In this document: in pieces, positions 4,248 through 29,143 of the stretch
Layout of the letters: every line of letters begins with the position of its first letter
Position numbering within the stretch: position 1 is the stretch's first letter
DNA from: Hyaloperonospora brassicae
Taxonomy: Eukaryota > Oomycota > Peronosporomycetes > Peronosporales > Peronosporaceae
DNA length: 64,000 nucleotides
Assembly (NCBI GenBank): GCA_947650285.1
Contig: CANTFL010001290.1
Location: forward strand, 1 to 64,000
Reading direction: 5' to 3'
Program-made: the position numbers and the translations under genes
Notes under the pieces: generated by a model
What the model saw: the letters and a program-made list of their open reading frames with translations, nothing else
What the model was told of the DNA's origin: nothing
Database searches by the model: none

Positions 4248-4638
4248 TGTAACGGGGCACACCCTTGCGTGAACTTAACGCAAGGGTTTCGGTGCCCCGA
4301 CGGACGTACACGTGGCAAGCGAGGAAGCGTAGGTGGGGTAAAAGTAGAACTGTTATATTAATATAATTAAGTCTTTCAACTACTGTCTCTCTGTTTGACT
4401 TAACTTAATTATGCTAATATAACTGAGTGTATGGTGACGTCTCGTCACCACTCATTGCGCGCGTCTCGCGGCGATTGGTTGGTCGATATCATCACGATAT
4501 CAACCAATGAACAGATCCTTTGGTCGACCCTTCAATATCACCACTTCGGTGATATTGTTTAAAGAATATCCATCCTTATATTCTTTATTGTCACTTTCCT
4601 TAAAGTGACAATTTCATGTAACGGGCTGCCCCGTTACA
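4248..4638 (-). repeat. Solo G1-type LTR (391 bp) with target duplication
   Basis: The ends are TGTAACGGGG...CCCCGTTACA. It is flanked by the perfect 5-bp duplication TTGCT (4243-4247 and 4639-4643), so this is a complete LTR left after LTR-LTR recombination. It matches the LTR at 54901-55291 in length and nearly in sequence. Its orientation is minus: compared with the plus-strand copy, the CCCTTGCGT...ACGCAAGGG hairpin comes first. Confidence 0.95.
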
Positions 4639-4643
4639 TTGCT

Positions 4644-6159: not shown

Positions 6160-6624
6160 TATTACGGGAAACTGCAACTAAGCACCGACAGCAGTGCATA
6201 GTAATCTCTCACTGAATGCAGTGAGAACTAGTGTCCTCATTAACGTACGTACACCGTACACGCCCAGAGGAAGACTAGGTACCAATTGACTTAGTTTAGA
6301 AGAAGGAAAAGTACAACCGTATTAATATGGTAAGTCGTATAGGTATCTTACTTCTTGTCTTGCCGTAATGATATTGATACCAAACCATGTATGATGGCGA
6401 CTACCCACCACCCATTGCGCGCGTCTAGCAGCGATTGGTGGGTTGACATAATCATAATATCAATCAATCAGTAGACCTTTGGGTCATCTCAACAATATCA
6501 CTATAACCAGTGATGTTGTTAATCGAATATTCAACATATTATTCTTCATTACCACTGTGCGAAATGGTAATAAAGAATAATGTTGAACAATCGTAACTTC
6601 CATGTAAGGGGATGCTTCGTTCCA
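6160..6624 (-). repeat. G1b 3' LTR
   Basis: It is alignable over its whole length with 13796-14258 (shared blocks such as GTCCTCATTAACGTACGTAC and CGCGTCTAGCAGCGATTGG). The terminal TGTAAC is mutated at the right end. A purine-rich tract (AGGAGAGGTGA on the minus strand, 6625-6635) abuts it, as expected for plus-strand priming. Confidence 0.8.
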
Positions 6625-6765
6625 TCACCTCTCCTTAGCTGATAGCCAGTTACCTTGTGACGATCAAAAGTTGGTGGCTACACGTTGGACACCAGTGAGC
6701 CATAAAGCACTTGATTGGACAGATCCATTCGTACCTGACCTTTCCTCGCATTTTATAACGTATCT

Positions 6766-8340
6766 ATGCTAGAGCACTCAAAGGCCACACAGCACGTTGA
6801 TGCACAATCATCCGCGGCAAACGAATCGTTGTCTACTGCTTCTTCTTTGCCCGCGGCACCTGTTGCCGCATGAGCACGAATTAACACACCACGGCTCACG
6901 ATGAGTTCGAAATGGAAGTCGTCTACTCAGACGACTCAGACGTGTATGACTCGAAAAAGGCTTCAAGTGTACCTCAATCACCCGCGGCACCTCTTCCTTT
7001 ATCAAAGACTCTGCCGAACGAACGGACCCGCGACTTGCATCACAGTATGTTTGGCAGTGATAAAGAGTAAAATGATGAATATGATTGCTCATTACCACAT
7101 CCAACTCGTGTGTATTTGTACGAGCGTGTTGACGATAGCTCGATCCGTCGTCACTCTGAGAAACGTAGTACCGACAAAGATACCGCGTCGAAGCGTGATG
7201 AGCTAAATCCGTGGGGCTTGATCGAGCGGATCATCAACAGCTTCTCTTAAGAGACAAGCTGGCACCATCAAATTACAGTATTCGATGTGAGCAAGCTCCA
7301 TGGCTTGTCCTCCAGCGCGAGCAACTTTCGCGCTGAAGAAGACTTTTACTTAGGTAGTTTTATCAATCATCGGTGGTAGAATGGAAACCAAAAGAGTGAC
7401 AAACATTCGCTTTGGCGGCATGGAACGCGTTCGTCCAAACTGTCAAGAATTTTGGACGTGATGCGTGTCTCCATGAACTTGATTCAGTACGCATCAATCT
7501 TAAAAACCGAACGCCAACCGGTGCAAGGTATTGGCTGCATCGTTTATCTCGTATGGCAGGCATTCCTTGCATCACATGGAGTAAGCCTTGTGCGAGTTGT
7601 ATTAACAACTCGCAGCGTGCTCAAAGGGAAGATTTTTCAATAAGTTCGCCTTGGGGATGGTCTCTCATGGCGGCTGAGATGCAGGACGCAATTGCAAACT
7701 TGCAAATCGATCTACAAGCGCAAAAGGCGCGTGCCTATCGATGGGACCAAGGACTCATCGGATGTGTCGCACCATACTGTTGAATTAATTTCTAAACGTT
7801 TCTATTGTATGGGATCGAGTCTCCCAGCTATCATACGATGGTGAATACCCCCTCCCCAGCAGACAAGGTAACTTTTACGCTCCTGGTTCTCTACGCGGTG
7901 GCTCAAAACACTCTCCACTCAAAGCGTCGACCGCCGTGAAAGTCCTCCAGTAGATATAGTGGAGGTAGGGAGACATGGTCCGTCTTAACCTCCGGATCTG
8001 CATGAGATTTTCGACCGCTACGAACGCGTCCTGACGGAGTTGAAGAACAACGTACAGCACGAGTACAATCGTCGGCAAGTCTTGCTGACGACCGTGCGAC
8101 GTCTCCGTACCGATCGGGAGAAATACCGAACGGACTTGGCATTCGCTCAGCTTGAAACGAACGCTAGCGTCGTGTCTTGCGCGACGAGCTAGGGGCGGCT
8201 CGTCGCGAGACTGCGTTACTGAACGGCCAACTTGAGTGTTTGGTCCGTGATCACAAGAACATGTTGGGAATTCTTGATCGTGCCGGCTATCTCCGTTGTC
8301 GGAAGAGGCCTCGTGCTGATAGTACGGGCGGAGACGACCA
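6766..8340 (+). pseudogene. G1b antisense ORF (aORF), broken copy
   Basis: It runs opposite to the element, between the integrase/chromodomain end and the 3' LTR. Frameshifts and stops break it, but pieces align with the G1a aORF (27010-28620) at protein level: LPNERTRDLHHSMFGSD against LPNERNRELHHSLFGSD; KRDELNPWGLIERIINSFS against KRDELKPWLLPERLINSLS; a WNAFVQ segment; a PCxxC pair; and a charged coiled coil ending in a basic GYLRCRKRPRAD tail. The substitutions are conservative (T/N, D/E, M/L, I/L), which points to past selection on the antisense protein. Function unknown. Confidence 0.7.
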
Positions 8341-8570
8341 ACATAAAACGTACGATGCGTGCGCATTCTGCGAGTCAACTCAATTTTGTATGCATTGCCC
8401 TTGCGGTGCAATACGTGAAAGGGACCAATGAATTTCGGCAGTAGTTTACTACTGACGACATTAGTGACTGCATGTACAGGTAAGTTTACCGCAGACAGTA
8501 GTACTAGGTCGTGGTCCTTAAACAAAGAACAATTGCTCTTCCATTTTTGTCTGCGTTCCGCTTCTGGCAA
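7780..8570 (-). pseudogene. G1b integrase C-terminal region and chromodomain remnant
   Basis: The open stretch 8570-7875 begins with the Gypsy integrase C-terminal module (LVLLSAVNLP, then SKLLPKFIGPFHVLHRKGNAY, then TFYVGRLRPYYQ), the segment that follows the catalytic core. Further on, frames broken by stops align with the G1a chromodomain tail down to the MSPWSHR end near 7760. In chromoviruses this domain guides integration to marked chromatin. It overlaps the antisense ORF on the other strand. Confidence 0.75.
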
Positions 8571-9640
8571 TCGTCCGCTTAAGCGATGGACTACTTAATA
8601 AATCGGACTAACTTCTCTTGATTCAGCAGGAAGTTTTTTACTGACTCGTAATCGCGTCGCTCAGTGCGCTTTGCGCGTACTGCTAAGATAGCTTTTGTTT
8701 CTTTCGCGTGGATATTATCGCCCTCGTTGGTGCAGTCATTGAAGATGTTGAATATGCCAGCATCGTCATCAATGTCTGATAAATCAACAGCGTCATCGCT
8801 ACTGCTGAGTTCGTCTTCTTCGACGCCGACGATATCGTCATCGGCATCAAACCTATCGGTGTGTTTGGTGATTCTTGATGATTGAGAGCCAGAACGTTTT
8901 CAGCTCGATAGAGTTCCTTCCCCCCTAAACCCGAGTAACCCTGTTTCAGGGAGAAGATACGGGGGTGTCGGTAGCCATACACGCAGAACTGTGTATGAGT
9001 TGTACATGCATGGACATTGTGTTTGATGGCGAATTTGACCTACGGCAAGAAATCACTCCAACTCGGAAACGAGTGGACGTAATCTCGAAAAATTTCTTCG
9101 ATGACGCGGTTGGCTCGTTCTGTTTTTCCATCTGTTTCAGGATGGTCAGAAGACGACATGTTAAACCGTATTCTAAATGTGCGGTACACGAATTTTCAAA
9201 AGTACGCCGCGAACTGGGGTCTCGATCAGAGCTAGTTCATTGGGTACGCCAAAGAGTCGAAACACTGCGTAGATGAATATACGCGCACATGCGTGTGCAG
9301 TAATCAACTTGGGGACCGCAGCAAGATGCACCATCTTGCTAAAACGATCTAAAAACACAAGAATATCATTCTTCTTGTGAGTGTCTTCCGGAAACACGAC
9401 GACTCAGTCCTTGGAAACGGACTCCCAACATTCTGCTGGCACCGGCAGAGGTTGTAATGGTGCACGAAATGAAGGAATAGGCTTCACCCGCTGACATAAT
9501 TTGCAAGTTTGAATGTACTTGCGGACCAACTAATACTGTCGGGGCCAGTAAAAGGCGTGACTGACCGTGCGGTAACTCTTTTCACGGCCACGATGCCCGC
9601 CTGATGGCGCATCTTGACATTTACACATGAGGCACAATCG
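8571..9640 (-). pseudogene. G1b integrase core and acidic linker, broken
   Basis: 9397-9173 gives the integrase core segment ILVFLDRFSKMVHLAAVPK, and 8982-8683 the HPR...-linker. A run of six G on the minus strand near 8922 marks where the frame of the integrase continuation and the frame of the acidic linker separate by -1, exactly as in G1a. The zinc-binding N-terminus lies further right (to about 9640) in broken frames. Confidence 0.7.
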
Positions 9641-9647
9641 CTAATCA

Positions 9648-10320
9648 TTATGATTGAGTACAACGACGCGAGTCGTGTCGTCTACAACTGCTGTGTAGTA
9701 CAGCAACCCGTTGCGAGTCGTATACCGATCCAAAGAGTAACGGTATAACCGGCAAATTTGACAAGGATGTCCGAGATGGTTTTGCAAGGAGATTCATCAA
9801 AAGGAGGAGATTCGTATCTCCTGCGTATGCCTTCCGTAAGTCGTCGAATAACGTCGACGACTGCACACTGACTGACAAAGCCGCAATAGTGAACAAGGCC
9901 TCATTATTGACGGTGTAGTCGGCTCAAAATCGAGCCGACGCGAGAGATTATCAGCGACGACATTCAGTCTGCTTGGTTCATACTCCACGGAGAAGTTGTA
10001 GTCCGCGAAGAAAGACATCCACCTTGCGATTCTCTGAGAGAGGTCTACACTGTAACGGCCGTGCTCAAAGACGCATGGTCTGGATAGACGATGAAGGTCT
10101 ATTGCCCAAGAGATAGGCGCGAAAATTATCCAAGGCAAACTTTCTGGTAAGGTTTTCTTGTAATTCTCGGGGTAATTGCTTTTGGCTGGTTGTAGCTGAC
10201 GCGATTGATAGCAGACAATGCGCTCCACGCCGTCTGTGCCCTATTATATTAACCCACAGCCGATCGCGTCATCGCTGGGGGCGCATACCTCATGGAATGC
10301 TCTGTCCTAATTAAAAATTG
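9648..10320 (-). pseudogene. G1b RNase H, broken
   Basis: 10228-9797 contains the RNase H core pieces (ERIVCYQSRQLQPAKSNYPE, then a FFADYNFSVEYEPSRLNVVADNLSRR block, the last conserved motif with its catalytic Asp neighbourhood). 9896-9648 continues into the linker ALSVSVQSSTLFDDLRKAY. This is the site where, in G1a, the F2 LTR is inserted; here it is uninterrupted and so shows the ancestral sequence. Confidence 0.8.
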
Positions 10321-10470
10321 CTAAAATGAGCTATTGCATAAAGATCTGCTTGATATCTGCAAAGAAACGCTGACGGTAGTGTTATATGACCACTTCAAAT
10401 TTGCTTGAGCAAGCAAGAGAGATGAACGGTCTTTCGGCTTAGTTGCGCGAGTACTTGTGCAAGTACGCCG

Positions 10471-11265
10471 CTATCCCAAGAATTTTACGAAGTCACTTGA
10501 CATCGACTGATACGGGCCAGTCGGCGGTCGCCTTGATCTTTTCGGGATCAGGGCGTACGCCGTGTTTACCCACGATGCACTCAAGAAGTGGTATTTCGCT
10601 AGCCGCGAATATACACTTCTTGATGTTGTCATACAACTCATGATTAAGCATAAGATGAACAACCTGACGAACGTGAGTTCTGTGAACTTCCACTTTCGTC
10701 TTTCCGTCAATGTCCCGGCTATGGACGAGCACATCGTCAAAGTAACTCGGTGCGAAATCCCGCACCGAACTCAACAGATTTGTCACATACCTGTTGAGCG
10801 TTACAGGGGAATTACTCAGCCCCTGTGACATCACTAGCCGCTCCCACAACATACCGCTTGGGGTGCCCACTGCCGTGTACGGGATGTCCCGTTCACGCAT
10901 GGGGATCTGATCGAATCAATCCATCAGGTCCATGGAAGAGAATATGCTACTCTTTAACATATTAGCAATAATTAAGTGTTTTCCCGGTATAAGTGTATGA
11001 GCCGGTATCGTTGCAGCATTCAACTTGTGGTATGCGTGCACTATCCGCCACCCTCCTGTGGCCTTTCGCATACGCTGGTCGGAGAGCTGTAAAAGGAAGT
11101 TGATTCTCTCATATGGTCTGCGGCCACGCTATCGGCAAAGAACTTGTCGGTCGCTAGTACTTGTTCACGAGGCAGTGGCCACTGCTTCATGACACAGTAC
11201 TTTAATCCCCGTTTGAGCTCGATTTCGTGTCGAGTGTCTTTATCCTTAGTCAATTCGCGATGCAC
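10471..11265 (-). pseudogene. G1b reverse transcriptase, broken
   Basis: Pieces 11265-11041, 10900-10493 and 10740-10471 cover RT. The palm motif is visible as SYFDDVLVHSRD (YFDD, catalytic Asp pair) followed by the thumb-side LHLMLNHELYDNIKKCIFAASE. An upstream HEIELKRGLKYCVMKQWPLPREQ marks the start of RT. Several frameshifts separate the pieces. Confidence 0.85.
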
Positions 11266-11744
11266 GGGTTCAGGGAATACATCCTTGAATTCGATTAAAT
11301 CCTTTTACAAAGGATTTGCCTGAAGTGACTACCAGGATTGAGACGTGTATCTCTCAATCCGAGTCTTCTCATCGATGACGCTTTCTCAATCGATTAATTG
11401 CTAGTAACTCGTTCGTTCCCAGTAAACATCATTGCCAACCGAATGTCGATGACGTTTTCGTCTTCCGCGACGAGTACAAAGATCTTCTTGACTTTGCCAC
11501 TACGCCGATCTAGTGAGAACCGTTTCGGTTGTAGCGTTGACCTTTGAGTGGTCTTCGAAGTTAATATCGGAGGCACAATCAGATCAAGCGTAAAGGCGCC
11601 TACGCTTGATCCGTCATTGACCAAGACATTCAGCGTATCGGTTTCTTCCTGGGACCTACTATCCCAAAGGACATCTGAGGGGTTATCCCATCAGGTCGCT
11701 AAGAGCCTGATCTCTCAGCAAGTAGATCTTGAAGGATTCCTTCC

Positions 11745-12545
11745 TCAAGTACGTAGGGACTTATTCCCTCGACGCCTTATGGCTGTGATCACACTGCCAA
11801 GAGCCTGGTCTTTTACGGTCGATTTTTCCGTCGACCTAGGATAACCGCGTTGCCGCCAATAAGCAGATTTTTTTCTTGGATGCAGATCGCTAGGCATGCA
11901 TCCATGTCCCGGTCCACTCGACTTATTCGAGTGGTGGACCTTCAGCGCCGCCTGTACTCCTGTACAGCCGCCGGGAGCTTGCTCCACAGTGTAGTGATCA
12001 ACTACACTGTGATCTTGTGCAGTAGTGCTAACGACCGTACCGCAAGTGAGGCCACCGCACTCACTCGCATAACATCCACATGCTTGCGGATTCACGAAGA
12101 CGTTCAACAGATGGTCATGTGATGAACAAGAATGTGCATCGTGACGGAACGATGCTGTCAATTTGATCTTGGGCCGTACCTTCTGATCCAAGGTAGTCCT
12201 AGGATGACATCAAATTTGTCATCCAGATCCAGTACAATGAAGTGATCATCGTACTGTTCACCCTCTAACGTGTAGTGGATTCCTACTACACGTTTCTCAA
12301 CGGTTATCGATGCGCCTGTTGCAAGGCGCACCGTCATCCTTGTGGAGGGGAATGTCGCGCTCAACGAACTTGAGCCTACGACCCTCTAGTGACTGGCGAC
12401 GAACAAAGTTGTTCGACGCCCCACAGTCTACTAGGGCACGAAGCGACAAATCATTTGTCGCTTCAAACTTCAAGGTGATGAGCGAAACGTCATCACCAGG
12501 TGCAGAGACACACAATGATTGTGTATCTGGAGCAACTTTCGTCAA
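11745..12545 (-). pseudogene. G1b protease and pol spacer (tract shared with G1a)
   Basis: 12545-12297 carries LRALVDCGASNNFVRR (catalytic Asp in DCGAS), 12364-12158 the FDVILGLPW flap region, and 12191-11745 the Cys-rich spacer (CGCYASECGGLTCG). It shares with G1a the TGA stop after GPRSN and the following frame jump, which G1c lacks. It also has an extra C near 12343 that breaks the protease frame only here. Confidence 0.85.
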
Positions 12546-12598
12546 GAGATTTGCAAATTCTCTTGAGGTTGCTGGATCAGTAGGGCGCTCCGCCCCTA

Positions 12599-13470
12599 CT
12601 AACCCCGACCATTTTTTGATGGTCCGTCTCGCTGTTGCGGCTTCGCAACAGCGCTGGACCCACGCCCATTGCCCTTTCTGGCAAATGGTCGTCCATTTCG
12701 CTCAGTACTGTTTGGTACTGGGCGTGGAGCACTACACTCGTATGCGTAGTGCCCTAACTTCTGACAGCGATTGCACCTCTGCAATCGCTTATTGTTTGAA
12801 GAGCGAGGTCTCTCGCTCTCAACATAGCAGAGGTCCATTGGTTCTGGACCTCCGATCTCTTGTCGTCTCGGTGGACGATAAGAGTTTGAGCTAGCATGAG
12901 CCTGTATCATGCTAAAGTCTTCCTGTTCCGCAGCTGATATTGCCTCTTCCAGCGTATTCAGCTCAAGGCGGAACAGGTGGCTACTGACGGACCCTTCTAC
13001 GAGCCCTTGCATGAACACCGTAATCAACGTGTGTTCATGGACTGGGTTAGCAGTTATACTACTCGCGAGGAGTCGTATATGTTGAGCGTAATCGTGCAGA
13101 TCACGCCCACCCTGCTTGAGTTATCTGAGCTCTGACTAAGCCCTGAACTGAGCCCGTGGCGGTTAAACGTTTGTTTGATACGGATCTTAAAGGACCCCAG
13201 CGACTCAAAAGCATATGGGTCGATCATCTTCAGTCCTAAGGTCCAAGTCTTGGCACGTCCTGCCAAATGAGTTTGAGCAAGCGTGAGTTTTATCTGCTCA
13301 TCGTCGATACGACGTGCCTCTATGGATCGTTTAAGTTCGATGAAGCATAACAACAGGGACTCTTCATCGACGCCACGGTACTTGGAGATATCAACCTTTA
13401 AGATCTCGGGGCGACGCGTGTGCGTCGTCCCGCCCACAGTAGCATAAATTGCTGCTGTCTCATCGGTCAT
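12599..13470 (-). pseudogene. G1b gag
   Basis: 13470-13054 is the capsid N-terminal part (diverged from G1a), and 13027-12599 the capsid end and nucleocapsid, which is residue-for-residue the same as G1a over about 140 residues, including the zinc knuckle CNRCQKLGHYAYEC (CX2CX4HX4C). The abrupt change from diverged to identical near 13073 marks the edge of the shared tract. Gag would form particles and bind RNA. Confidence 0.85.
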
Positions 13471-13795
13471 ATCTGGGCACCGGGTTCTCTCAACTGCTCA
13501 TACTGTTGAGAACTTTGCTGGTGAAGCAAGGCTACTTTCACTTTTTCGTCTACAAGCTCATGTTAAGTGAACTTGGCTATAGCAGGATGTTGTTGATCTC
13601 TGTTAAGAGACTCCAAAATGACGCACATCACGAATTCGCTAACGGTATGATTCATTCTTTCTACCGCACACCATTCGATGTAACTCAAATGGCTATAGAC
13701 CTCACGCGTGGCATGAAAGCTTTTTTCATCATCCAACGTGTTCGTGTCGGATGAGGTAATTGTGGTCGCTGAACGGACTACGAACGGCAACCAGG

Positions 13796-14258
13796 TATAA
13801 GAGGGACTGGAACTGCGCGCTGATAGCAGTACATAGCAATCTTACACTGGATGCAGTGAGAACTAGTGTCCTCATTAACGTACGTACACCGTACGCGCCC
13901 AGAGGAAGACTAGGTACCAATTGACTTAGTTTAGAAGAAGGAAAAGTACAACCGTATTAATATGGTGATTCATATAGGTCTCTTACTTCTTGTCTTGCCG
14001 TAATGATATTGATACCAAACCATGTATGATGGCGACTACCCACCACCCATTGCGCGCGTCTAGCAGCGATTGGTGGGTTGACATAATCATAATATCAATC
14101 AATCAGTAGACCTTTGGGTTATCTCAACAATATCACTATAACCAGTGATGTTGTTAATCGAATATTCAACATACTATTCTTCATTACCACTGTGCGAAAT
14201 GGTAATAAAGAATAATGTTGAACAATCGTAACTTCCATGTAAGGGCTACCCCGTTACA
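13796..14258 (-). repeat. G1b 5' LTR (463 bp)
   Basis: On the minus strand it begins TGTAACGGGGTAGCCC. A mutated primer site (TGGTTGCCGTTCGTAGTCC on the minus strand, 13775-13793) sits two bases inside. It is longer than the 391-bp subfamily and has its own hairpins: the ATTACCA...TGGTAAT stem replaces ATTGTCAC...GTGACAAT of the short LTRs. Confidence 0.85.
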
Positions 14259-18373: not shown

Positions 18374-18388
18374 ACCGGCAGCCAAGCA

Positions 18389-18404: not shown

Positions 18405-18449
18405 GAGAAGCCGCAACACCTCTTCGCCGCGACGCGCGAACCACCCATT

Positions 18450-19345: not shown

Positions 19346-19735
19346 TGTAACGGGGCAGCCCGTTACATGGAAATTGTCATTTGAGAGATAATGACAATAA
19401 CGAATATTAAGTTGAATATTCTTTAAACAATATCACCAAAGTGGTGATATTGAAGGGTCGCCCAATGAGTCTGTTCATTGGTTGATATCTTGATGATATC
19501 AACCCACCAATCGCCGCAAGACGCGCGCAATGAGTGGTGACGAGACGTCACCGTACACTCAGTTATATTAGCATAATTAAGCTAAGTCAAACAGAGAGAC
19601 AGTGGTTAAAGACTTAATTATATTAATATAAAAGTTTTACTTTTACCCTACCTACGCTTCCTCGTTGCCTTGTGTACGTCTGTCGGGGCACCGAAACCCT
19701 TGCGTTAAGTTCACGCAAGGGTGTGCCCCGTTACA
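19346..19735 (+). repeat. G1a 5' LTR (390 bp)
   Basis: TGTAACGGGG...CCCCGTTACA ends. It carries the hairpin series described for 54901-55291, with the paired change ATTGTCATT...AATGACAAT in place of ATTGTCACT...AGTGACAAT. Confidence 0.95.
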
Positions 19736-19737
19736 CC

Positions 19738-19756
19738 TGGTAGCACTTTGTAGTCC
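19738..19756 (+). other. G1a primer-binding site
   Basis: TGGTAGCACTTTGTAGTCC starts two bases after the LTR. The same site occurs in G1c (47056-47074, minus). The tRNA is not assigned. Confidence 0.75.
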
Positions 19757-19779
19757 CTCCAAGGATCACAGCATCCAAC

Positions 19780-20932
19780 ATGAACATGTTGGATGAAGAA
19801 GACACCTTTCACGCCACGCGTGAAGGGTTTACCCATTTGAGTGACATCGAATGGAGTGCGGTAGAACGAATGAGTTCTACCGTAGGCGAGTTCGCCATTA
19901 GCGTCATGTTGGAGTCTATAGACAGAGACCAACAACATGCCGCTATTGCCAAGTTCATTCAGAATGAATTTGCCATCGAGAGGGAGAAAGTAGCCTTGCT
20001 TCACCAGCAAGGCTCTCAACAGGCCGAGCAGTTAAGAGAACTCGGTGCTCAACAGACGGAAGCTGTTGAGACAGCAGCAATTTCATGCTGCTGCGGGCGG
20101 GACGGCGCATGCGCGTCGTCCCGAAGTCATGAAAGTTGACATCTCCAAGTATAGTGGAGTCCCGGAGGACTCCATGTTACTGTGGTTTGTCGAACTCGAC
20201 AGAGCCTTAAGGGCTCGTCGCGTCGAAGATGAGCAAATGAAACTCACATTTGCTCAGACCCACTTGGCAGGCCGTGCCAAAACTTGGCCCCTGGGACTCG
20301 AGAGTAGCGACCCAAACGTGTTTAGGTCGCTAGATGACTATAAGTCCCGGCTCAGACAAACTTTTGAGCCGCCACGGGCTGAATTCAGGGCTCGTTCAGA
20401 GCTCCTAAAACTCAAGCAGGGTAAGCGTGATGTGCACGCTTACGCACAACATATAAGACTCCTAGCAAGTAGTATAACTGCTAACCCAGTCCATGAACAC
20501 ACGTTGATTACGGTGTTCATGAAAGGGCTCGTAGAAGGGTCCGTCAGTAGCCACCTGTTCCGCCTTGAGCTGAATACGCTGGAAGAGGCAATATCAGCTG
20601 CGGAACAGGAAGACTTTAGCATGATACAGGCTCATGCTAGCTCAAACTCTTATCGTCCACCGAGACGACAAGAGATCGGAGGTCCAGAACCAATGGACCT
20701 CTGCTATGTTGAGAGCGAGAGACCTCGCTCTTCAAACAATAAGCGATTGCAGAGGTGCAATCGCTGTCAGAAGTTAGGGCACTACGCATACGAGTGTAGT
20801 GCTCCACGCCCAGTACCAAACAGTACTGAGCGAAATGGACGACCATTTGCCAGAAAGGGCAATGGGCGTGGGTCCAGCGCTGTTGCGAAGCCGCAACAGC
20901 GAGACGGACCATCAAAAAATGGTCGGGGTTAG
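19780..20932 (+). pseudogene. G1a gag with one frameshift
   Basis: Starts at the first ATG after the leader. Residues 1-100 are the matrix-like N-terminus. Near 20085 one extra T (GCAATTTCATG against the other copies) shifts the frame, after which 20045-20932 carries capsid (MKVDISKYSGVPEDSML onward) and the nucleocapsid zinc knuckle CNRCQKLGHYAYEC, then a basic Arg/Gly tail and a TAG stop. The protease lies in a different frame, so Gag-Pol would need a frameshift. The N-terminus matches G1c gag (47026 on). Confidence 0.9.
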
Positions 20933-20937
20933 TAGGG

Positions 20938-21372
20938 GCGGAGCTATCTACTGATCCAGCAACCTCAAGAGAATTTGCAAATCTCTTGACGAAAGTTGCT
21001 CCAGATACACAATCATTGTGTGTCTCTGCACCTGGTGATGACGTTTCGCTCATCACCTTGAAGTTTGAAGCGACAAATGATTTGTCGCTTCGTGCCCTAG
21101 TAGACTGTGGGGCGTCGAACAACTTTGTTCGTCGCCAGTCACTAGAGGGTCGTAGGCTCAAGTTCGTTGAGCGCGACATTCCCCTCACAAGGATGACGGT
21201 GCGCCTTGCAACAGGCGCATCGATAACCGTTGAGAAACGTGTAGTAGGAATCCACTACACGTTAGAGGGCGAACAGTACGATGATCACTTCATTGTACTG
21301 GATCTGGATGACAAATTTGATGTCATCCTAGGACTACCTTGGATCAGAAGGTACGGCCCAAGATCAAATTGA
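20938..21372 (+). pseudogene. G1a aspartic protease
   Basis: The catalytic motif is LRALVDCGASNNF, with D-C-G in the position of D-S/T-G. Then come the strand RMTVRLATGASITV and the flap/core LDLDDKFDVILGLPW. The frame opens upstream of the first ATG (20986), as expected for a pol domain made by fusion to Gag. It ends at a TGA after GPRSN. In G1c the same place reads through as Trp, so this stop is a lesion. A 1-nt deletion about 30 bp further moves the rest of pol to another frame. Confidence 0.9.
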
Positions 21373-23267
21373 CAGCATCGTTCCGTCACGATGCACATTC
21401 TTGTTCATCACATGACCATCTGTTGAACGTCTTCGTGAATCCGCAAGCATGTGGATGTTATGCGAGTGAGTGCGGTGGCCTCACTTGCGGTACGGTCGTT
21501 AGCACGACTGCACAAGATCACAGTGTAGTTGATCACTACACTGTGGAGCAAGCTCCCGGCGGCTGTACAGATGTACAGACTGCGCCGAAAGTCCACCACT
21601 CGAATAAGTCGAGTGGACCGGGACATGGATGCATGCCTAGCGGGCAGCATCTTAGACAAAAGAAACCTGTTGCCTTCAAAGGGCAACATGGAAATCCTAG
21701 GTCGACTGGAGAGTCGACCGTAGAGGATCGGTTCCTGACTGTGGTTGCACAGCCACAGTCGGAAGACGTCGAGGGAATAAGTCCCCACGTACTTGAGGAA
21801 GGAATTCCTCAAGTGTCAATTGCTGAGGGATTAGGCCCTCAGCAACCTCTGGAAACAAGTTCCCAGGAAGAAATCGAGACGTTGAACGTCTTGGTTAATG
21901 ACGGATCAAGCGTAGGCGCTTATACGCTTGATCTGATTGTGCCTCCCAAGTTAACTTCGGAGATAACCCAGTTGCCAACGCTAGAACTGAAACGGTTCTT
22001 GCGTGATCTGCGTAGTGGCAAATTCAAGCAGATCTGCATACTTGTCACGGAGGATGAGTATGTGGCCGATATTCGGTCGGCTACAGTATTTGCTGAGAAC
22101 GAACGGGTTCTCAGCAGCTCATCGATGGACGAAAGTGTCCTCGATGAGAAGACTCGGATTGAGCGATACACGTCTCAATCCTGGGAGTCACTTCAGACAA
22201 ATCCTTTGTATAAGGATTTGATCGAATTCAGGGATGTGTTCCCTGAATCCGTACCTTGCGAGTTGCCTAAGGACAAAGGCAATCGACACGAGATCGAGCT
22301 CAAACCGGGCTCAAAATATTGTGTCATGAAGCAGTGGCCAATGCCTCGTGAACAAGTACTAGCGATCGACAAGTTCTTTGCCGATCGCTTAGCAGCGGAC
22401 CATGTGAGGAAATCAACTTCCTTTCACAGCTCTCCGACCTTCTGTGTGCTAAAGGCCACAGGAGGGTGGCGGATAGTGCACGCATTCAACAAATTGAATG
22501 CTGCAACGGTACCGGCTCAGACGCCGATACCGAGGAAGGACGTAATCATAGATGGTATGTCAAAGAGTACCATCTTTTCGTCCATGGATCTGATGGATGG
22601 ATTCTATCAGATCCTGATGCGTGAACGGGACGTCCCGTTCACGGCAGTGAGTACCCCCAGCGGGATGCTGTGGGAGTGGCTAGTGATGCCACAGGGGCTG
22701 AGTAATTCCCCTGCAACATTCAACAGATGTGTCACAAATCTGTTGAGATCGGTGCGAGACTTCGCACCGAGTTACTTCGACGATGTGTTAGTCCATAGCC
22801 GGGCTATGGACGTAAAGACGGACGTTGAAGTTCACAGAACTCACGTTCGTCAGGTTCTTCAACTTATGCGCAAGTATAAGTTGTACGCCAACCTCAAGAA
22901 GTGTATATTCGAGGCTAGCGAAATACCACTTCTTGGGTGCATCGTGGGTAAACACGGCGTACGCCCTGATCCCGAAAAGATCAAGGCTATCACCGAATGT
23001 CCAGTGCCAGTCGATGTCACGGGACTAAGGAAGTTCCTTGGTCTTGCGGCGTACTTGCACGAGTACTCGCGCAACTACGCCGAAGTGACGGTACATCTTT
23101 CTTGCTTGCTCAAGAAAAATGTGAAGTGGACATGGAACGCTGAGTGCCAGAGTTTCTCTGCAGGTATCAAGCGGAGCTTGATGCAGTCGCCGATCTTGGG
23201 GATTGCAGATCAGGACAGACCATTTCATGTGGTCTGTGACGCCAACGATTTCGCGATCGGCTGTTAA
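21339..23267 (+). CDS. G1a pol: spacer and reverse transcriptase (642 aa open)
   Basis: Residues 1-300 are a low-complexity spacer with a Cys cluster (CGCYASECGGLTCG). RT begins about residue 310 (HEIELKPGSKYCVMKQW). Its motifs are SSMDLMDGFYQI (first catalytic Asp), VMPQGLSNSPATFNR, and SYFDDVLVHSR (YFDD, Asp pair), then the thumb and the start of RNase H (VVCDANDFAIGC). It stops with TAA where other copies continue into RNase H. RT copies element RNA to cDNA in particles. The frame is long, but the protein needs the lesions on both sides repaired to be functional. Confidence 0.9.
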   Translation: MDQKVRPKIKLTASFRHDAHSCSSHDHLLNVFVNPQACGCYASECGGLTCGTVVSTTAQDHSVVDHYTVEQAPGGCTDVQTAPKVHHSNKSSGPGHGCMPSGQHLRQKKPVAFKGQHGNPRSTGESTVEDRFLTVVAQPQSEDVEGISPHVLEEGIPQVSIAEGLGPQQPLETSSQEEIETLNVLVNDGSSVGAYTLDLIVPPKLTSEITQLPTLELKRFLRDLRSGKFKQICILVTEDEYVADIRSATVFAENERVLSSSSMDESVLDEKTRIERYTSQSWESLQTNPLYKDLIEFRDVFPESVPCELPKDKGNRHEIELKPGSKYCVMKQWPMPREQVLAIDKFFADRLAADHVRKSTSFHSSPTFCVLKATGGWRIVHAFNKLNAATVPAQTPIPRKDVIIDGMSKSTIFSSMDLMDGFYQILMRERDVPFTAVSTPSGMLWEWLVMPQGLSNSPATFNRCVTNLLRSVRDFAPSYFDDVLVHSRAMDVKTDVEVHRTHVRQVLQLMRKYKLYANLKKCIFEASEIPLLGCIVGKHGVRPDPEKIKAITECPVPVDVTGLRKFLGLAAYLHEYSRNYAEVTVHLSCLLKKNVKWTWNAECQSFSAGIKRSLMQSPILGIADQDRPFHVVCDANDFAIGC

Positions 23268-23660
23268 TTGATGCAATATGGCACAGACGGCGCAGAGCGC
23301 GTCATCTGTTATCAGTCGCGTCAGCTGCAAGCAGCTGAGCGCAATTAATTAGTGCATGATAAGAAACTCCTTGCCATGAAGTACGCACTGACTAAGTTTT
23401 GCGTCTATCTCTTGGGAGATTGACCGCTTATCATCTATACGGACCTTTCGTCATTACACACGACCGTAATTAGTCCACACCTCTCGCAACGAATGGCGAG
23501 GTGGCTGTCTTTCTTCGCGGAGTAAAACTTCTCCGTGGTTTATAACCAGGACGAATAAACGTCGTCGCTGATGCGCTCTCGCGCCGGCCCGATTTCGAGC
23601 CGGACGCACAATTCAACAGTAGGGTCAAGCCCACTGTTGCGACACTGTCAGTCAGTGTCC
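23268..23660 (+). pseudogene. G1a RNase H, left part before the F2 LTR
   Basis: Translated pieces give ERVICYQSRQLQAAERN, then NFSVVYNQD and the disturbed last motif (the -ADALSRRP- block is frame-shifted). Several stops are present. It ends exactly at the inserted LTR; the sequence goes on at 25483 with LLDDVRKAC, matching the uninterrupted linker in G1b (9648-9896). Confidence 0.8.
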
Positions 23661-25482
23661 TGTGGCAAAGTCATTATTTAAAATTTATGATATGGATTGG
23701 TGGCCATATAATTGAGGCGCCACGTACTGGTGAAAAATGGCACCAAGTGATCTGGCGATCCAATGAGAAACGGAAGGTGATCCCACGGAGATTGACGGAC
23801 CTATCCAACGGTCGGTCGAAGGATGGACGTGGAACGGTCTGAGACGAGGCGCAGAAAGGGGTGATTTCCTTGGAACAATCTAGGACGAGTCGCAGACATC
23901 GATGATTTCCACGGTGCAATCTGGGACGAGGGACTAGATTGAACCAGAAGACCGATTTGAACTGAGAAAGTTGCTTCTGAGACCGAGCGATGCGACGTGA
24001 CTCTGTGACAAAGTTGTAGCATCCAGGTGGTCGAAGATACACATCACCGATCTCCAATGGGAGTACTGATTTAGGTTAAGTATAGCCCGATCTGGAAGTG
24101 TGGATGTTCGCGGAGGTCCGTGGGACCGTTGTGAGAACTGTGGATGGTCCTATTGAGCAGATAAACCCTTGAAGATGGAATCGGACCATGCAAAACGAAC
24201 GAAAAATACATATAGGGCCGGATCGCACTGTGTCGATCCTCAACGATCTCGAATTGGGCATCAGATCGGTCATGTTCCCTGCTGATTATGGATATATCGA
24301 TGATGAAGCTATTTTATTGTGATATACATGCTTGATGAAGGTCCATGAGTGATGTCCTAAAAGTTCAGACCGAAAGAGCCAGTGGAAGCCGGTTGAATTG
24401 ACGTCGCAAAATGGATTTAGACACATTCGGCATTTGGATACTATTTTGGACTTTTCGGTACCAAAATTGGGTATTAGGTACCGCATTTGGAATTTGGTCT
24501 TGTTTGGTGTCTAGGTACGATATCGGGAGTATTGGCGCTATCTTTGGGGTACAGGTCACGGAATTTCGACGCGTGTTCAAGGGGGCGGTCAAGCTTAAAG
24601 GTGATATCGGTTTAGAGAGTGACCTACAGTTTGGAATAGGCTTAAAGATAGGGTGGCTATTAATTTGGTTGGATAATAAAACAGTTACCGTTTTTGCATT
24701 TGAAGCACGTCGCAGACTTCTCTTCTGGGCAGGATATTTGGCCTCCCGTCGGTCAAGAGACGTCGCACGCGCCGTGTTTCGTGTACTCACCTTGGATTGT
24801 TTGGCCAAGGTGGGGTTAAGGTAACTCAACTCAACTCAACTCAAACTGCTAGGGTAGCAGCAAACAACGGTAAAGGAAAAGGATTTTGGTTACAAGATCG
24901 CGAGGTGGCTCAAGTGGTCAAAAGATCTGGACAAGGAGTTCAAGACAAGACCGAGCAAGACCGAAGCAATCTACATGGCAGATCGGCACGTTTCATTTTG
25001 GCGAAACAAGCAACCGATCCACCCACATTGCGCACTTCCGGCAAGATCGGCCGATCCCAAGACCAGATCGGACCGATCCCAACACAAGATCGACGCAAGA
25101 CTACTATTTTCTGAGTGAAGATTTCCGCACAGCAAAGACCCCGATCCCGAAGACAAATCGAGATCAGTGCGATTCAATGTCGAGATTGCGACATCTTCAC
25201 CTAGAGATCACCGCAACTCAAGATCAAGATCGCAGAACCCCCGTTCGTGGTGTGAAGATTTCCGCACCGGAAGCGAACGCTCAACCCAACCTCTCAGCGA
25301 GATCGACATCTCCCAAGTCCATTACGAAGAGCTCAAGCCATCCCAACCGACGGGTACACAAGGTGAGCACAAGGCAATACAACAAGGCACAGATCGGAGT
25401 ACCCTCTCCGTGAGTCGGCAAGTCTGGGCAAGTGTAAGATCGACATTCACTAAAGTAATTTTGTAAGATCGACTTCACCACA
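23661..25482 (+). repeat. Solo F2 LTR (1822 bp) nested in G1a pol
   Basis: TGTGGCAAAG...CTTCACCACA ends, flanked by the 4-bp duplication GTCC (23657-23660, 25483-25486). It is nearly identical to, and exactly as long as, the inverted F2a 5' LTR at 41660-43481. It is very rich in GATC (11 copies between about 24890 and 25180). Confidence 0.95.
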
Positions 25483-26671
25483 GTCCCGTCGTCAATTTTA
25501 CTTGACGACGTACGAAAAGCATGCGTAGAAGATATGGATCTTCTGAGATTGATGGATCATCTGGTGAATCCATCCAGTAAATCCATGAGGGATTTACCGG
25601 CTTTGTACCGATCCTCATCGGATCGGTATAGTACACGCAACGGATTGCTGTACTATACAGCTGTTGCCGGCGACACGCCTCGTGTCGTCGTATCCGCTCA
25701 TCATGATTTGCGTTTACGCATCATGTATGAGTGTCACGATGCCCCAACAGGCGGCCATCGTGGTAGAGAAAAGACTTACCTCACGGTAAGTCGTGACTTT
25801 TACTGGGCGCCAGTATCAGTTTGCTCGCAAGTACATACGTGCTTGCGAGGTTTGTCAACGGGTGAAGCCTAGTCCTTCATCCCGTGCGCCATTGCAGCCT
25901 CTGCCTGGTCCGACAGAGTGCTGGCAGTCCGTTTCAATGGACTTCGTCTTCGGTTTTCCCGAAGACGCTCACAAGAATAATGGTATTCTTGTGTTTGTTG
26001 ACCGATTCAGCAAGATGGTGCATCTTGCTGCTGTCCCTGAGTCGATCAAGGCTCAAGGTTGTGCTCGTGTCTTTCTTGACACGGTCTTTAGACTCCACGG
26101 GTTACCCCGTGAACTCGTATCCGACCGTGACCCTCGGTTCACGGCGGCGTTTTGGCAAACCGTGTTCCGTTCTCTTGAAACACGATTGAAGATGTCCACT
26201 TCTGACCATCCCGATAAAGATGGTCAGATGGAACGTGCGAACCGTGTCCTCGAAGAGATCCTTCGAGGATATGTCCACTCGTTTCCGAGTTGGAGCGAAT
26301 TCCTACCCATGGTGGAATTCGCCATCAATAACTCGGTGCATGCTTCCTCCCAGCACACACCGTTTTATGTAAATGGCTTACGCCATCCACGTGTTCCCGC
26401 CCTTATAGAGTGTGACTCTTGGATAAGGGGGGAGGGACTCGCTCGAGCAAAAACCGTTTTGGCTCTTGCTCATCACGTGTCGACGCTAACGTCGTCACGT
26501 ATGATGCCGATGTCGATCAGGTCGACATCGATGAAGAAGATCACCTCAATGATAGCGAAGACGCTATTATTGACTCGGATGATGATGACGATGCTGGTAT
26601 ATTCAGCATCGTCAACGATTATTCCAGCGAGGAAGAAGACAACCTCGCTGAAGAAGAGAGCAATCTCTTAG
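25483..26671 (+). pseudogene. G1a integrase
   Basis: The zinc-binding part (HHDLRLRIMYECHDAPTGGH, then ACEVCQRVK, HHCC type) is split by a frameshift between 25793 and 25872. The catalytic core follows: Asp in SMDFVFGFPEDAHK, Asp in LVSDRDPRF, Glu in GQMERANRVLEE (DDE). After the HPRVP block, the zero frame runs past a six-G run at 26427-26432 to a stop at 26671, while the acidic linker that normally continues pol lies in the -1 frame. Integrase joins cDNA to the genome. Confidence 0.9.
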
Positions 26672-27129
26672 CAGTGCGCACGAAGCGCACTGAAAGACAA
26701 AACAAAGAGTCAGCAGAGAACTTCCTGCTGACTCGAGAAGCGGTAGTCGACTCCATCGCAAATGCGATGGACCGCCAGAAAAGGAACGCAGACAAGAATG
26801 GAAGAGAAAATGTTCTTTCATTTAAGGTTAACGACCTAGTACTACTGTCTACGGTAAACTTACCTGGACATGCAGTCACTAGTGTCGGCAGTAGTAAACT
26901 ACTGCCGAAGTACATTGGGCCGTTTCGAGTGTTGCATCGCAAGGGCAATGCATACACGATCGAATTACCACGCAAGATGCGAACACATCCTACGGCTACG
27001 TGGGGCGACTCAGGCCGTACTGTCAGTACGAGCCTTCTTCTTCCGATGAAGATAGCCCCCACATTCAATAACATCCATCAAGTTGTTGCGTTCACGCTCC
27101 AGACGACCCGTCTGGTCGCGCAGATATGA
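26419..27129 (+). pseudogene. G1a integrase C-terminal module and acidic linker (-1 frame)
   Basis: Reading from the six-G run, this frame has a long Asp/Glu stretch (about residues 25-85) and then the integrase C-terminal module LVLLSTVNLPGHAVTSVGSS, LLPKYIGPFRVLHRKGNAY. A single-base deletion near 27000 (where G1b reads TFYVGRLRPYY) shifts the rest, and a TAA follows at about 27070. The first part overlaps the integrase frame for 84 codons. Confidence 0.85.
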
Positions 27130-28620
27130 TACCTCGGAACTCAACCGAGATATCTCCCCGCGAGCTGTCGCCAGCTCGCCGAAAAGGGAGCGGACATCCC
27201 GATCGACCTGAAGATGCGCTGTGTCATACTCGGCGCGATCCCTCGCCCTATCAGCCTCGTGATCCTTGCGGTTCTTCCGCACGGTATCAGTCAAAGCGTA
27301 GCGCCGGTCGCGCTCGTGCTTCAAGTCATCGCGCAATTCATCGATTGCGCGATCTATCTCGTAAGGGTCGAGATGGTGAACCGAATCATCTGGAGGAGGC
27401 CTTTCCTCCTCCACCACATCCTTTGGTGGATTCTCACGGAGATCAACGCTTTCTAGTGGAGCGTATCTTGAATCACCGTGACGATTCAGGATCAAGGACG
27501 AGCTACCTCGTCCAGTGGCGGGGGTATCCACCCTCTTGGAACAGCTGGGAGCCCCGATCTCAGCTGTTGATGGATGTTGAAGGTCTCGTCCGCCAGTATG
27601 ACGAGACCCATACGATGAGTCCTGTGGCCCATCGGTAAACACGCGCCCTGGGCGCTTGTAGACGGATTGCAAGTTTGCAATCGCGTCACGCATCTCAGCC
27701 GAGATGTGTGCCCTTCCCCAGGGCGAATTTAGGGAGTACACGTCCCTATGTGCACGCTTCGAGTTGTCAACACAACTCTCACAAGGGTCTCCCCATGTGA
27801 GGCAAGGAATGCCTGCCTCACTCTATAAACAATGCAACCGGTACCAAGCACCGGTTGGCGTTCGCCTTTCGAACCTGAGGCGTGTCGCCTCAAGTTTCTT
27901 GAGCCACCCTTCTCGTCCAAAATTCTTTACATTTTGGACGAACGCGTTCCACGTAGCCAAAAGCGAGGCCTTGTCACGCTTTTGGTTGCTGTTGTACCAT
28001 CGATGTCTAAGAAAGACATCGAGATAAAAATCTTATTCAGCGCGAAAGTTCTTCGCGCTGGAACTCAAGCCGTGAAGCTCAGTTGCATCGAATAAGGGTA
28101 TTCGATGGTGCTGGCTTGTCTCGTGAGACAAGCTATTGATAAGCCGTTCGGGCAAAAGCCACGGCTTCAGCTCATCACGCTTCACAGTGGTACCTTTGTC
28201 GTTACCACGGCCTTCAGATTGACGACGGCTCACGCCATCGTCATCACGCTCGTACGAAGAGGCACGAGCCGGCGGTGGTAAGGAGTAATATTCCTCACCA
28301 CCCTGATCATCATCATCATCACTGCCGAATAGACTGTGATGCAACTCACGATTCCGTTCGTTCGGCAGTGGCCTTGGCGAATACTGAGGCGTCGCCGGTG
28401 ATCGAGACACCTCCGGACCATTGCCCGAGTCAGACACGTCTGACTCGCCAGAGTAGATGACCTCTACATCAGGGTCACCGTGCGCACGCGGTGTGATACC
28501 GCGTGCACCTGAAGCACCTGTTGCTGCAGGCGTAGAAGGAGCAGCAGACGACGAATTGTCTGCCGCAGAGGCTGGCACAGCACCGGGCTGTGTAGGTCTT
28601 GAGTCACCTCGCATAGACAT
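27010..28620 (-). pseudogene. G1a antisense ORF (aORF), 537 codons, two stops
   Basis: One unbroken minus-strand frame from the ATG at 28620 to 27010 has only a TAA (28033-28035) and a TAG (27823-27825). Order: Ser/Ala/Pro-rich N-terminus; acidic segment with PDVEVIYSGESDVSDS and an Asp run (residues 49-105); KRDELKPWLLPERLINSLS (about 146); a WNAFVQNVKNFGREG helix region; a Cys cluster GIPCLTWGDPCESC (about 265-280); and a coiled coil (about 420-525) with a basic HRKKKARTD end. It is conserved in G1b. I do not recognise the family. The position, opposite to pol and read toward it from near the 3' LTR, recalls antisense ORFs of some plant Gypsy elements. Confidence 0.75.
27126..27638 (+). CDS. 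G1a chromodomain at the pol C-terminus
   Basis: After a Ser/Arg/Pro-rich lead, residues 105-165 are a chromodomain: FLVERILNHRDDSGSRTSYL, then VQWRGYPPSWNSWEP, with the aromatic residues and the W-x2-YP...W-EP pattern of the fold. In chromoviral Gypsy elements it directs insertion to heterochromatin by binding methylated histone tails. The ATG at 27126 is only the first Met in this frame; the domain belongs to the pol polyprotein. The whole region is also read on the other strand by the antisense ORF. Confidence 0.85.
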   Translation: MIPRNSTEISPRELSPARRKGSGHPDRPEDALCHTRRDPSPYQPRDPCGSSARYQSKRSAGRARASSHRAIHRLRDLSRKGRDGEPNHLEEAFPPPPHPLVDSHGDQRFLVERILNHRDDSGSRTSYLVQWRGYPPSWNSWEPRSQLLMDVEGLVRQYDETHTMSPVAHR

Positions 28621-28740
28621 GTTAACTATGCGAGATCAAGCGGAAAGTGAATGGAACGGACCCAACAAGTGCTCCCTGTCCCAATGGTGCCCAACGGGTG
28701 GCCGCCATATTTTCGATAGTCACACGGTAACTATCAGTTA

Positions 28741-28752
28741 AGGGGGGGGTGA
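28741..28752 (+). other. G1a polypurine tract
   Basis: AGGGGGGGGTGA lies directly before the 3' LTR and would prime plus-strand DNA synthesis. Confidence 0.85.
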
Positions 28753-29143
28753 TGTAACGGGGCAGCCCGTTACATGGAATTGTCACTTTGAAAGAAAGTG
28801 ACAATAAAGAATATAAAGATGGATATTCTTTTAACAATATCAACAAAGTGGTGATATTGAAGAGTCGACCAAGGAGTCTGTTCATTAGTTGATATCTTGA
28901 TGATATCAACCCACCAATCGCCGCAATACGCGCGCGATGAGTGGTGACGAGACGTCACCATACACCCAGTTATATTAGCATAATTTAGCTAAGTCATACA
29001 GAGAGAGAGTAGTTAAAAGACTTAATTTATTAATATAAAAGTTTTACTTTTACCCTACCTACGCTTCCTCGCTTGCCACGTGTATGTCCGTCGGGACACC
29101 CAAATCCCTTGCGTTAAGTTACGCAAGGGTGTGCCCCATCACA
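28753..29143 (+). repeat. G1a 3' LTR (391 bp)
   Basis: It starts TGTAACGGGG and ends GTGCCCCATCACA. It differs from the 5' LTR by dozens of changes. Its right neighbour is the inside of an F2 LTR, cut at the GTAGTCTTG position. Confidence 0.95.

What the first reader, a model, noticed from the sequence alone, without database searches (positions are those of the whole stretch)
19346..29143. A Gypsy element whose coding sequence is paved with perfect hairpins
Read by eye, G1a shows more than forty perfect inverted repeats with stems of 7-12 bp and loops of 0-15 nt, spaced every few tens of bases through gag, PR, RT, IN and the antisense ORF. Checked base by base: 20712-20731, 20742-20765, 20878-20901, 21067-21091 (12-bp stem, 1-nt centre), 21519-21545, 21791-21814, 21904-21933, 22091-22116, 22198-22220, 22620-22643 (24-nt perfect palindrome), 22791-22811, 25970-25993, 26028-26050, 26707-26734, 26886-26907, 27914-27940, 28086-28107, 28114-28133. 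With random bases, a perfect stem of 9 bp or more with a loop up to 10 nt is expected about 0.3 times in 8 kb. The pattern covers very different proteins and both coding strands, so amino-acid bias cannot explain it. Possible causes are selection for a structured genomic RNA (packaging, protection, control of translation, escape from or feeding of small-RNA pathways) or a template-switching process that perfects near-palindromes.
Basis: seen in the sequence. Interest (0 to 1): 0.93.

Follow-up and report, generated by a model that had tools for sequence, protein, structure and literature searches.

The report
Retrotransposon paved with perfect hairpins
A young, abundant jumping gene in an oomycete genome is written almost end to end as short perfect hairpins, in coding and non-coding parts alike, far beyond chance or codon bias, which points to an unusually strong pressure for folded RNA or to copying errors that keep perfecting the hairpins.

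Summary
17 of 18 listed palindromes are exact. The window copy is an old, broken copy cut by a 1.82-kb F2 LTR that lacks such hairpins. Of 17 young near-complete copies (about 7.98 kb), 14 have LTRs at least 99.5% identical. Copy L010 carries 114 perfect stems of 8 bp or more, 5-10 per 500 bp from LTR to LTR; stems are mostly 8-10 bp, loops 4-5 nt. Its pol ORF has 57; synonymous shuffles give 1.5. Folding energy in pol exceeds synonymous shuffles by 49%; RNA phages give 15-28%. F2, the insert and 13 flanks lack the pattern. Stems change about half as fast as their surroundings, compensated changes occur, and leftover mismatches sit where protein blocks repair. Three hairpins carry exactly inverted loops in some copies, a template-switch signature. 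Best reading: selection for pervasive short RNA hairpins, helped by fold-back template switching. Template switching alone is a serious rival, since G-U pairs are scarce and stems are not G+C-rich. Proteins of Phytophthora relatives hint that the trait is wider. Six literature searches listed no earlier report.

The parts
19346..19735 (+). 5' LTR of the element, itself with hairpins (19346-19367, 19373-19398, 19428-19452, 19480-19504, 19696-19722)
20036..20932 (+). gag reading frame with zinc knuckle; hairpins at 20230-20256, 20421-20443, 20742-20765, 20878-20901 among others
   Evidence: Pfam Retrotrans_gag E 2.8e-15; stems
20830..21372 (+). protease frame; includes the 12-bp stem 21067-21091
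   Evidence: Pfam RVP_2 E 3.6e-06
21321..23267 (+). reverse transcriptase and start of RNase H; includes the 24-nt perfect palindrome 22620-22643 and 22791-22811 in the RT core
   Evidence: Pfam RVT_1 E 1.3e-26, RT_RNaseH_2 E 1.3e-07
23661..25482 (-). NOT part of the element: inserted LTR of element F2, almost free of hairpins; natural control
   Evidence: absent from the other copies compared; 99.3% to 43481-41660, 1 stem of 8 bp or more
25790..26671 (+). integrase frame with hairpins such as 25970-25993, 26008-26030, 26586-26614
   Evidence: Pfam rve E 3.6e-09
27010..27822 (-). antisense ORF, first piece in this copy (one 540-codon ORF in L010)
   Evidence: homologues
28033..28635 (-). antisense ORF, second piece in this copy
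28753..29137 (+). 3' LTR with the same LTR hairpins
6171..14245 (-). second, older related element on the other strand with many of the same hairpins (3.6 stems of 8 bp or more per kb over 6171-14189)
43482..46532 (-). fragment of a third relative (5.2 stems per kb over 43479-46532), hairpins at homologous sites with compensated changes
4248..4639 (-). LTR of the family standing alone, with LTR hairpins
54901..55291 (+). LTR of the family standing alone, with LTR hairpins

Best explanation
The element is a Ty3/Gypsy LTR retrotransposon of an oomycete whose RNA is under strong selection to fold into a nearly continuous series of short local hairpins (stem about 9 bp, loop 4-5 nt, about 24 nt in all). 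The array is built mostly step by step, using synonymous sites. Fold-back template switching during copying adds to it: the same process flips loops inside perfect stems and can repair a mismatched arm. Shown: the density, its independence of codon usage, the stem constraint, compensated pairs, loop inversions. Inferred: that the selected molecule is RNA, and that the benefit is escape from small-RNA silencing and/or compact packaging, with stems kept too short to feed Dicer.
For: Density far above synonymous shuffles in gag, pol and antisense ORF and even along the element. Energy excess 48.7% in pol, 54.6% gag, 38.2% antisense ORF, against 15.1-27.8% in four RNA-phage replicase genes and -2.5% in an F2 ORF. 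Stem length and loop length each have an optimum; few stems exceed 12 bp. Between two young subfamilies stems differ at 35 of 2584 sites, the rest at 130 of 5192; codon position 3 15 of 739 against 54 of 1386; sites I left unassigned to a frame 4 of 418 against 31 of 872. Compensated pairs; 9 of 10 pairs changed on both sides were paired before. A but not T is enriched in loops on the coding strand, p 0.001 and 0.73. Mismatches that a synonymous change could repair are G-U 19 to A-C 8, p 0.05. Perfecting changes fall on both arms (six stems).
Against: G-U is only 5.9% of predicted pairs in gag-pol, against 11-12% in four RNA phages. Deep mismatches in 10-bp arms are 15 G-U to 18 A-C, and G-U against A-C does not differ significantly by repairability (Fisher p 0.16). 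Sense and antisense strands fold about equally well. Stems are hardly richer in G+C than the rest, 53 against 52%, which selection for RNA stability should raise. At codon position 1 stems change nearly as fast as the rest, 10 of 722 against 24 of 1459. No RNA was measured.
Confidence: 0.5

Rival explanations
1. Template switching alone: while copying, the element's reverse transcriptase (or a host polymerase) folds back on its product and copies one arm into the other, so near-palindromes become perfect. Protein constraint removes harmful conversions, and no benefit from structure is needed.
For: Exact loop inversions at three hairpins: L010 coordinates 3521 (L034; sister L031 the same with one base missing), 4783 (L035, L036) and 7359 (window relative Wm2); among 640 loop-haplotype pairs 21 match the reverse complement and none the plain reverse or the complement. 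Perfect Watson-Crick stems with few G-U pairs, no G+C enrichment. Mismatches survive where neither base is a third codon position, 34 of 51 against 481 of 1210 matched pairs. Template switching is published to create and maintain hairpins and to leave loop-only inversions (PMC8794818, abstract and first part of Results).
Against: Perfecting changes are not gathered in one arm: 2 of 6 stems, 2.5 expected (weak). Density is about the same in LTRs and in coding sequence (7 stems of 7 bp or more in the 391-bp LTR, 94 in 5.1 kb of gag-pol), where copying alone should do more in non-coding DNA. Stems change more slowly than their surroundings also outside the assigned frames. F2 in the same window shows nothing, so the process would have to be special to this family. 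A-rich loops on one strand.
Confidence: 0.3
2. Selection on both strands or on DNA: hairpins are wanted in sense and antisense RNA together (the element has an antisense gene, so both RNAs could meet and form double-stranded RNA), or in single-stranded cDNA or cruciform DNA.
For: Sense and antisense fold about equally well. G-U and A-C are about equal in deep mismatches. The antisense ORF is conserved as a protein.
Against: A-rich, not T-rich, loops on the coding strand in gag-pol; G-U over A-C where repair is synonymous, marginal.
Confidence: 0.15
3. Chance, codon bias, base composition or an assembly artefact.
For: None found.
Against: Shuffles; copies on many separate contigs; stems shared by diverged relatives; near absence from the insert, F2 and 13 flanks.
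Confidence: 0.01

Closest known systems
Genome-scale ordered RNA structure (GORS) of persistent RNA viruses
   Same: Coding sequence folds better than synonymous shuffles along the whole genome, in many hairpins rather than a few special elements (PMC7642675, passages).
   Different: An LTR retrotransposon, not an RNA virus; short, local, perfect stems; 38-55% energy excess where PMC7642675 gives 7.5-10.7% for HCV, about 15% for SARS-CoV-2 and 23.4% as the highest among vertebrate RNA viruses (passages; its shuffling method differs somewhat from mine). Whether GORS stems are as perfect was not tested on those viruses.
RNA phages (Leviviricetes) with folded coding genomes
   Same: Hairpins within coding sequence; energy excess 15.1-27.8% in replicase genes of PP7, SP, GA, AP205.
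   Different: Perfect stems of 8 bp or more 0.47-1.67 per kb against 13.9 in L010 (loops 3-15).
Template-switch mutations that make and repair RNA hairpins (Monttinen and Loytynoja 2022, PMC8794818)
   Same: Loop-only inversions inside intact stems, one of the classes that the paper finds enriched.
   Different: There rRNA and microRNA genes in DNA replication; here a whole protein-coding element. Whole-arm conversion was not seen.
Ty3/Gypsy elements with an extra antisense ORF, such as plant elements with additional ORFs (PMC7264820, search listing only)
   Same: An additional antisense ORF beside gag and pol; its place between pol and the 3' LTR in plant elements is recalled.
   Different: A protein without a clear Pfam family; the two homologues whose source names an organism are from oomycetes, the other six are unnamed contigs; hairpins.

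Membership tests
Ty3/Gypsy LTR retrotransposon | LTRs flanking gag, protease, RT, RNase H, integrase in that order | tested here: met
Ty3/Gypsy LTR retrotransposon | RT closest to Ty3/Gypsy elements | tested here: inconclusive
   Pfam Ty3_capsid and Ty3 peptidase matches and oomycete RT homologues; no RT tree was built
GORS | Folding energy below synonymous shuffles across the coding genome | tested here: met
   18 windows of 351 nt in three ORFs, lowest excess 35.1%
GORS | Structure spread over the genome rather than in a few elements | tested here: met
   5-10 stems per 500 bp; 44 of 44 windows of 150 nt with z below -2
GORS | Carrier is a positive-strand RNA virus | tested here: not met
   integrated element with LTRs and integrase
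GORS | Folding kept while the actual pairings differ between relatives | tested here: inconclusive
   some hairpins rewritten between young subfamilies; peptide test on other species is indirect
GORS | Disruption lowers fitness in the host | not testable with these tools
   needs experiments
Template-switch mutation | Loop inversion between intact stems | tested here: met
   three hairpins, controls 0
Template-switch mutation | Several changes at once turning one arm into the complement of the other | tested here: not met
   2 of 6 stems against 2.5 expected; small sample, ancestral states taken from decayed copies
Known structured RNA families (Rfam) | Match at gathering score | tested here: not met
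   0 matches in 19300-29200

The most novel reading that the evidence does not exclude
A lineage of oomycete retrotransposons encodes two things at once over its whole 8 kb, proteins on both strands and an array of more than a hundred perfect hairpins of about 24 nt, kept perfect by fold-back copying in its own replication cycle and by selection. The trait has moved to new hairpin positions across Phytophthora and downy-mildew Gypsy elements, while many Globisporangium relatives lack it.
Probability: 0.35. Interest if true: 0.95.

Novelty: new variant of a known kind. Interest (0 to 1): 0.88.

Why it matters
In a DNA-integrated element with many young copies and older relatives, this is the strongest coding-sequence RNA-structure signal among all that I computed or saw cited as whole-genome means. 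It makes two open questions testable: what pervasive RNA structure is for, and whether perfect hairpins are made by template switching or by selection. It may also help to explain how a retrotransposon expands in a host whose relatives have an active small-RNA system.

Tried and rejected
The first wobble test (G-U 298 to A-C 353 summed over 19 non-independent rows) looked like proof of a DNA-level process. Four RNA phages gave only 20:12 in the same kind of test, and splitting by repairability gave 19:8 against 29:26, so I downgraded it to weak evidence. The whole-arm copying test did not support template switching. Relatives' DNA in viral contigs: nothing. Genome contigs gave only L043, a 40%-identical Gypsy in a contig binned as a cyanobacterium, with 2 stems of 8 bp or more in 6.9 kb. 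Rfam: nothing at gathering score. A Globisporangium query of the own genome listed the same family again, so no second young Gypsy family was sampled; F2 in the window is the only other element used.

The peptide test (could a protein be encoded with perfect stems of 10 bp or more, against 20 local shuffles) covered the 120 listed homologues. I grouped 89 by genus name and left out 31 that are unnamed or of other genera (P0010 from Pythium oligandrum has z 0.37). z above 2: Phytophthora 51 of 67, Globisporangium 2 of 16 (one, P0013, has 5.66), Peronospora 2 of 6. The proteins are related to each other, so these are not independent counts. In five Phytophthora proteins 12 capable sites lie at L010 hairpins, 10.0 expected; in all 11 proteins looked at 30 against about 20.5, a modest excess. 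It is a hint only.
Full report
WHAT WAS CHECKED. Of the 18 listed palindromes 17 are exact; 26028-26050 is a slip for 26008-26030. The element halves 19346-23660 and 25483-29137 hold 48 and 42 perfect stems of 8 bp or more with loops up to 15 (11.1 and 11.5 per kb), while the piece between them, 23661-25482, holds 1. That piece is an LTR of the neighbouring element F2 (99.3% identical to 43481-41660, with TG..CA ends and a 4-bp duplication read from the junctions). It is missing from the other copies compared. So an unrelated insert in the middle of the element serves as a natural control. Thirty dinucleotide shuffles give 0.47 and 0.97 stems where 45 and 34 are seen.

THE FAMILY. The genome (G000, 100.6 Mb) belongs to an oomycete by its protein relatives: the named ones are Peronospora, Globisporangium, Phytophthora and Pythium. 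One search scored 119 places (of 6120 candidates) that encode this reverse transcriptase at 91-100% identity, a lower bound. Of 20 regions fetched, 17 near-complete copies were oriented and measured: lengths run 7912-7993 bp and 14 of 17 have LTRs at least 99.5% identical, so the family is young. The window copy is 95.8% identical to L010 over 2.5 kb and its frames are broken, where many copies have an open pol frame of 1339 codons; it is an older relative. Domains are in Ty3/Gypsy order. A 540-codon antisense ORF in L010 has 8 homologous proteins, two of them named, from Hyaloperonospora arabidopsidis and Peronospora matthiolae. It is therefore probably a gene; its two pieces in the window copy match no Pfam family above the curated cut-off.

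THE PATTERN IN AN INTACT COPY. L010 (7,985 bp) has 114 non-overlapping perfect stems of 8 bp or more, 5 to 10 in each 500 bp from LTR to LTR; perfect hairpins of 7 bp or more cover 42% of it. Stem lengths 8 to 14 occur 41, 37, 26, 14, 5, 1 and 1 times over loops up to 30, overlapping ones included; loops peak at 4-5 nt. Synonymous shuffles that keep protein and codon usage leave 1.5 where pol has 57, 0.5 where gag has 15 and 0.7 where the antisense ORF has 26. In 150-nt windows the mean z is -6.1 (gag-pol, 34 windows) and -5.6 (antisense region, 10 windows). F2 has -0.1 and two other stretches 0.15 and 0.24; the insert has -0.96, with a quarter of its 12 windows below -2. Against synonymous shuffles in 351-nt windows the energy excess is 48.7% (pol, 11 windows), 54.6% (gag, 3) and 38.2% (antisense ORF, 4). 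The replicase genes of phages PP7, SP, GA and AP205 give 21.4, 15.1, 21.4 and 27.8%, and an F2 ORF -2.5%. PMC7642675 (passages only), with a somewhat different shuffle, reports HCV 7.5-10.7%, SARS-CoV-2 about 15% and 23.4% as the highest for vertebrate RNA viruses; single regions there reach more, above 50% in one gene. Flanks of 13 of 17 copies hold 4 stems in 24.2 kb; four flanks (57 stems) were set aside because one search finds pieces of the same family in them.

HOW THE STEMS EVOLVE. Older relatives share the stems and have decayed in them without preference. The 101 stem pairs of L029 are in L010 94 unchanged, 3 changed on both sides and still paired, and 4 mismatched. Of the 351 stem pairs of L010, L029 keeps 233, has 53 in gaps, 4 changed on both sides and still paired, and 61 unpaired, 16 of these G-U. 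Between two young subfamilies stems change more slowly: 35 of 2584 sites against 130 of 5192 in all; codon position 3 15 of 739 against 54 of 1386; sites outside the frames I assigned 4 of 418 against 31 of 872; at position 1 hardly, 10 of 722 against 24 of 1459. Compensated pairs are seen directly (L010 2482/2493 and 6961/6976; the LTR hairpin near 33-44 in L009). One hairpin near 7115-7143 is rewritten in L025 and again paired; L015 has a mismatch there. Against older copies 9 of 10 pairs changed on both sides were paired before, and 26 pairs were made by a one-sided change; 55 of 114 stems could be assessed. Internal mismatches sit where neither base is a third codon position in 34 of 51 cases, against 481 of 1210 matched pairs. 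The register in which third positions face each other is rarer, 32 stems against 56 and 52, and in pol 12 against 32 and 30; the stretch 5500-6481, where the + and the antisense frames overlap and stems are partly counted twice, goes the other way, 8 against 4 and 2. So protein constraint limits what is otherwise a push to full pairing.

SELECTION OR COPYING. For selection on RNA: constraint and compensation as above; an optimum in stem and loop length; A but not T enriched in gag-pol loops on the coding strand (p 0.001 and 0.73); G-U over A-C 19:8 where a synonymous change could have repaired the pair, 29:26 where it could not (p 0.05, and 0.16 for the contrast). Against it: G-U is only 5.9% of predicted pairs in gag-pol (RNA phages 11-12%), deep mismatches in 10-bp arms are 15 G-U to 18 A-C, stems are not G+C-rich, and the two strands fold alike (p 0.20 and 0.50), although two of four phages also show no significant strand difference. 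For copying: three hairpins in which some copies carry the loop exactly inverted between intact stems (3521, 4783, 7359 in L010 coordinates); 21 haplotype matches to the reverse complement and none to the reverse or the complement among 640. The 21 come from these three places only, and L035 and L036 are near-identical copies on one contig. Monttinen and Loytynoja (PMC8794818; abstract and first part of Results read) list loop-only inversions among the enriched template-switch patterns in rRNA. Against copying as the only cause: repairs fall on both arms about as expected (2 of 6 stems one-armed, 2.5 expected; weak), and density is no higher in the LTR than in gag-pol. I therefore commit to selection for RNA hairpins with template switching as helper (0.5), template switching alone at 0.3 and both-strand or DNA-level selection at 0.15.

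WHAT IT MAY DO. This part is inference. Short stems could make RNA hard to reach for small RNAs and for second-strand copying while staying below Dicer size, and could compact the genome for packaging. In Phytophthora infestans small RNAs map to both strands of Gypsy elements, and some 21-nt small RNAs depend on a Dicer-like enzyme (PMC3522703, passages only). No expression data exist here.

HOW WIDE. DNA of other oomycetes was not available. A protein-level test asks whether a protein can be encoded with more perfect stems of 10 bp or more than its local shuffles. L010 pol gives 56 against 34.5 (z 5.1); Phytophthora homologues exceed z 2 in 51 of 67, Globisporangium in 2 of 16 and Peronospora in 2 of 6. 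In five Phytophthora proteins the capable sites lie at L010's hairpins about as often as expected, 12 against 10.0; over all 11 proteins compared 30 against about 20.5. This suggests, and does not show, that related elements carry hairpins of their own, largely at other positions.

NOVELTY. Six full-text searches of the held library listed no title or abstract start that reports hairpin-paved LTR retrotransposons; most subscription journals and preprints are not in it.

Noticed in passing
23661-25482 and 41660-43481: An F2 LTR (TG..CA, 4-bp duplication GTCC) sits in pol of the window copy, and a 99.3% identical F2 LTR ends at the same pol site in the relative at 43482-46532. 21890-25482 matches 45232-41660 at 95.3%, while 20597-21555 matches 46243-45285 at only 76%: a mosaic or local rearrangement.
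   Followed up: partly
27010-28635 (-); L010:5894-7513 (-): Antisense ORF (540 codons in L010), conserved as a protein at 36-53% identity in downy mildews and unnamed contigs and at 88% in one further contig protein, function unknown.
   Followed up: partly
L010 coordinates 7056-7160: Fast-changing zone of the antisense ORF where hairpins are rewritten between young subfamilies.
   Followed up: partly
L028 and L026 (L010 coordinates 4459-4483, 3479-3515): Short clusters of differences in otherwise young copies, probably recombinant patches from other subfamilies.
   Followed up: no
L043 (CAKZGI010000157.1): A Gypsy-like RT in a contig binned as a cyanobacterial genome, probably eukaryotic contamination.
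   Followed up: no
17318-18448 (-): 376-aa ORF without any Pfam match upstream of the element.
   Followed up: no
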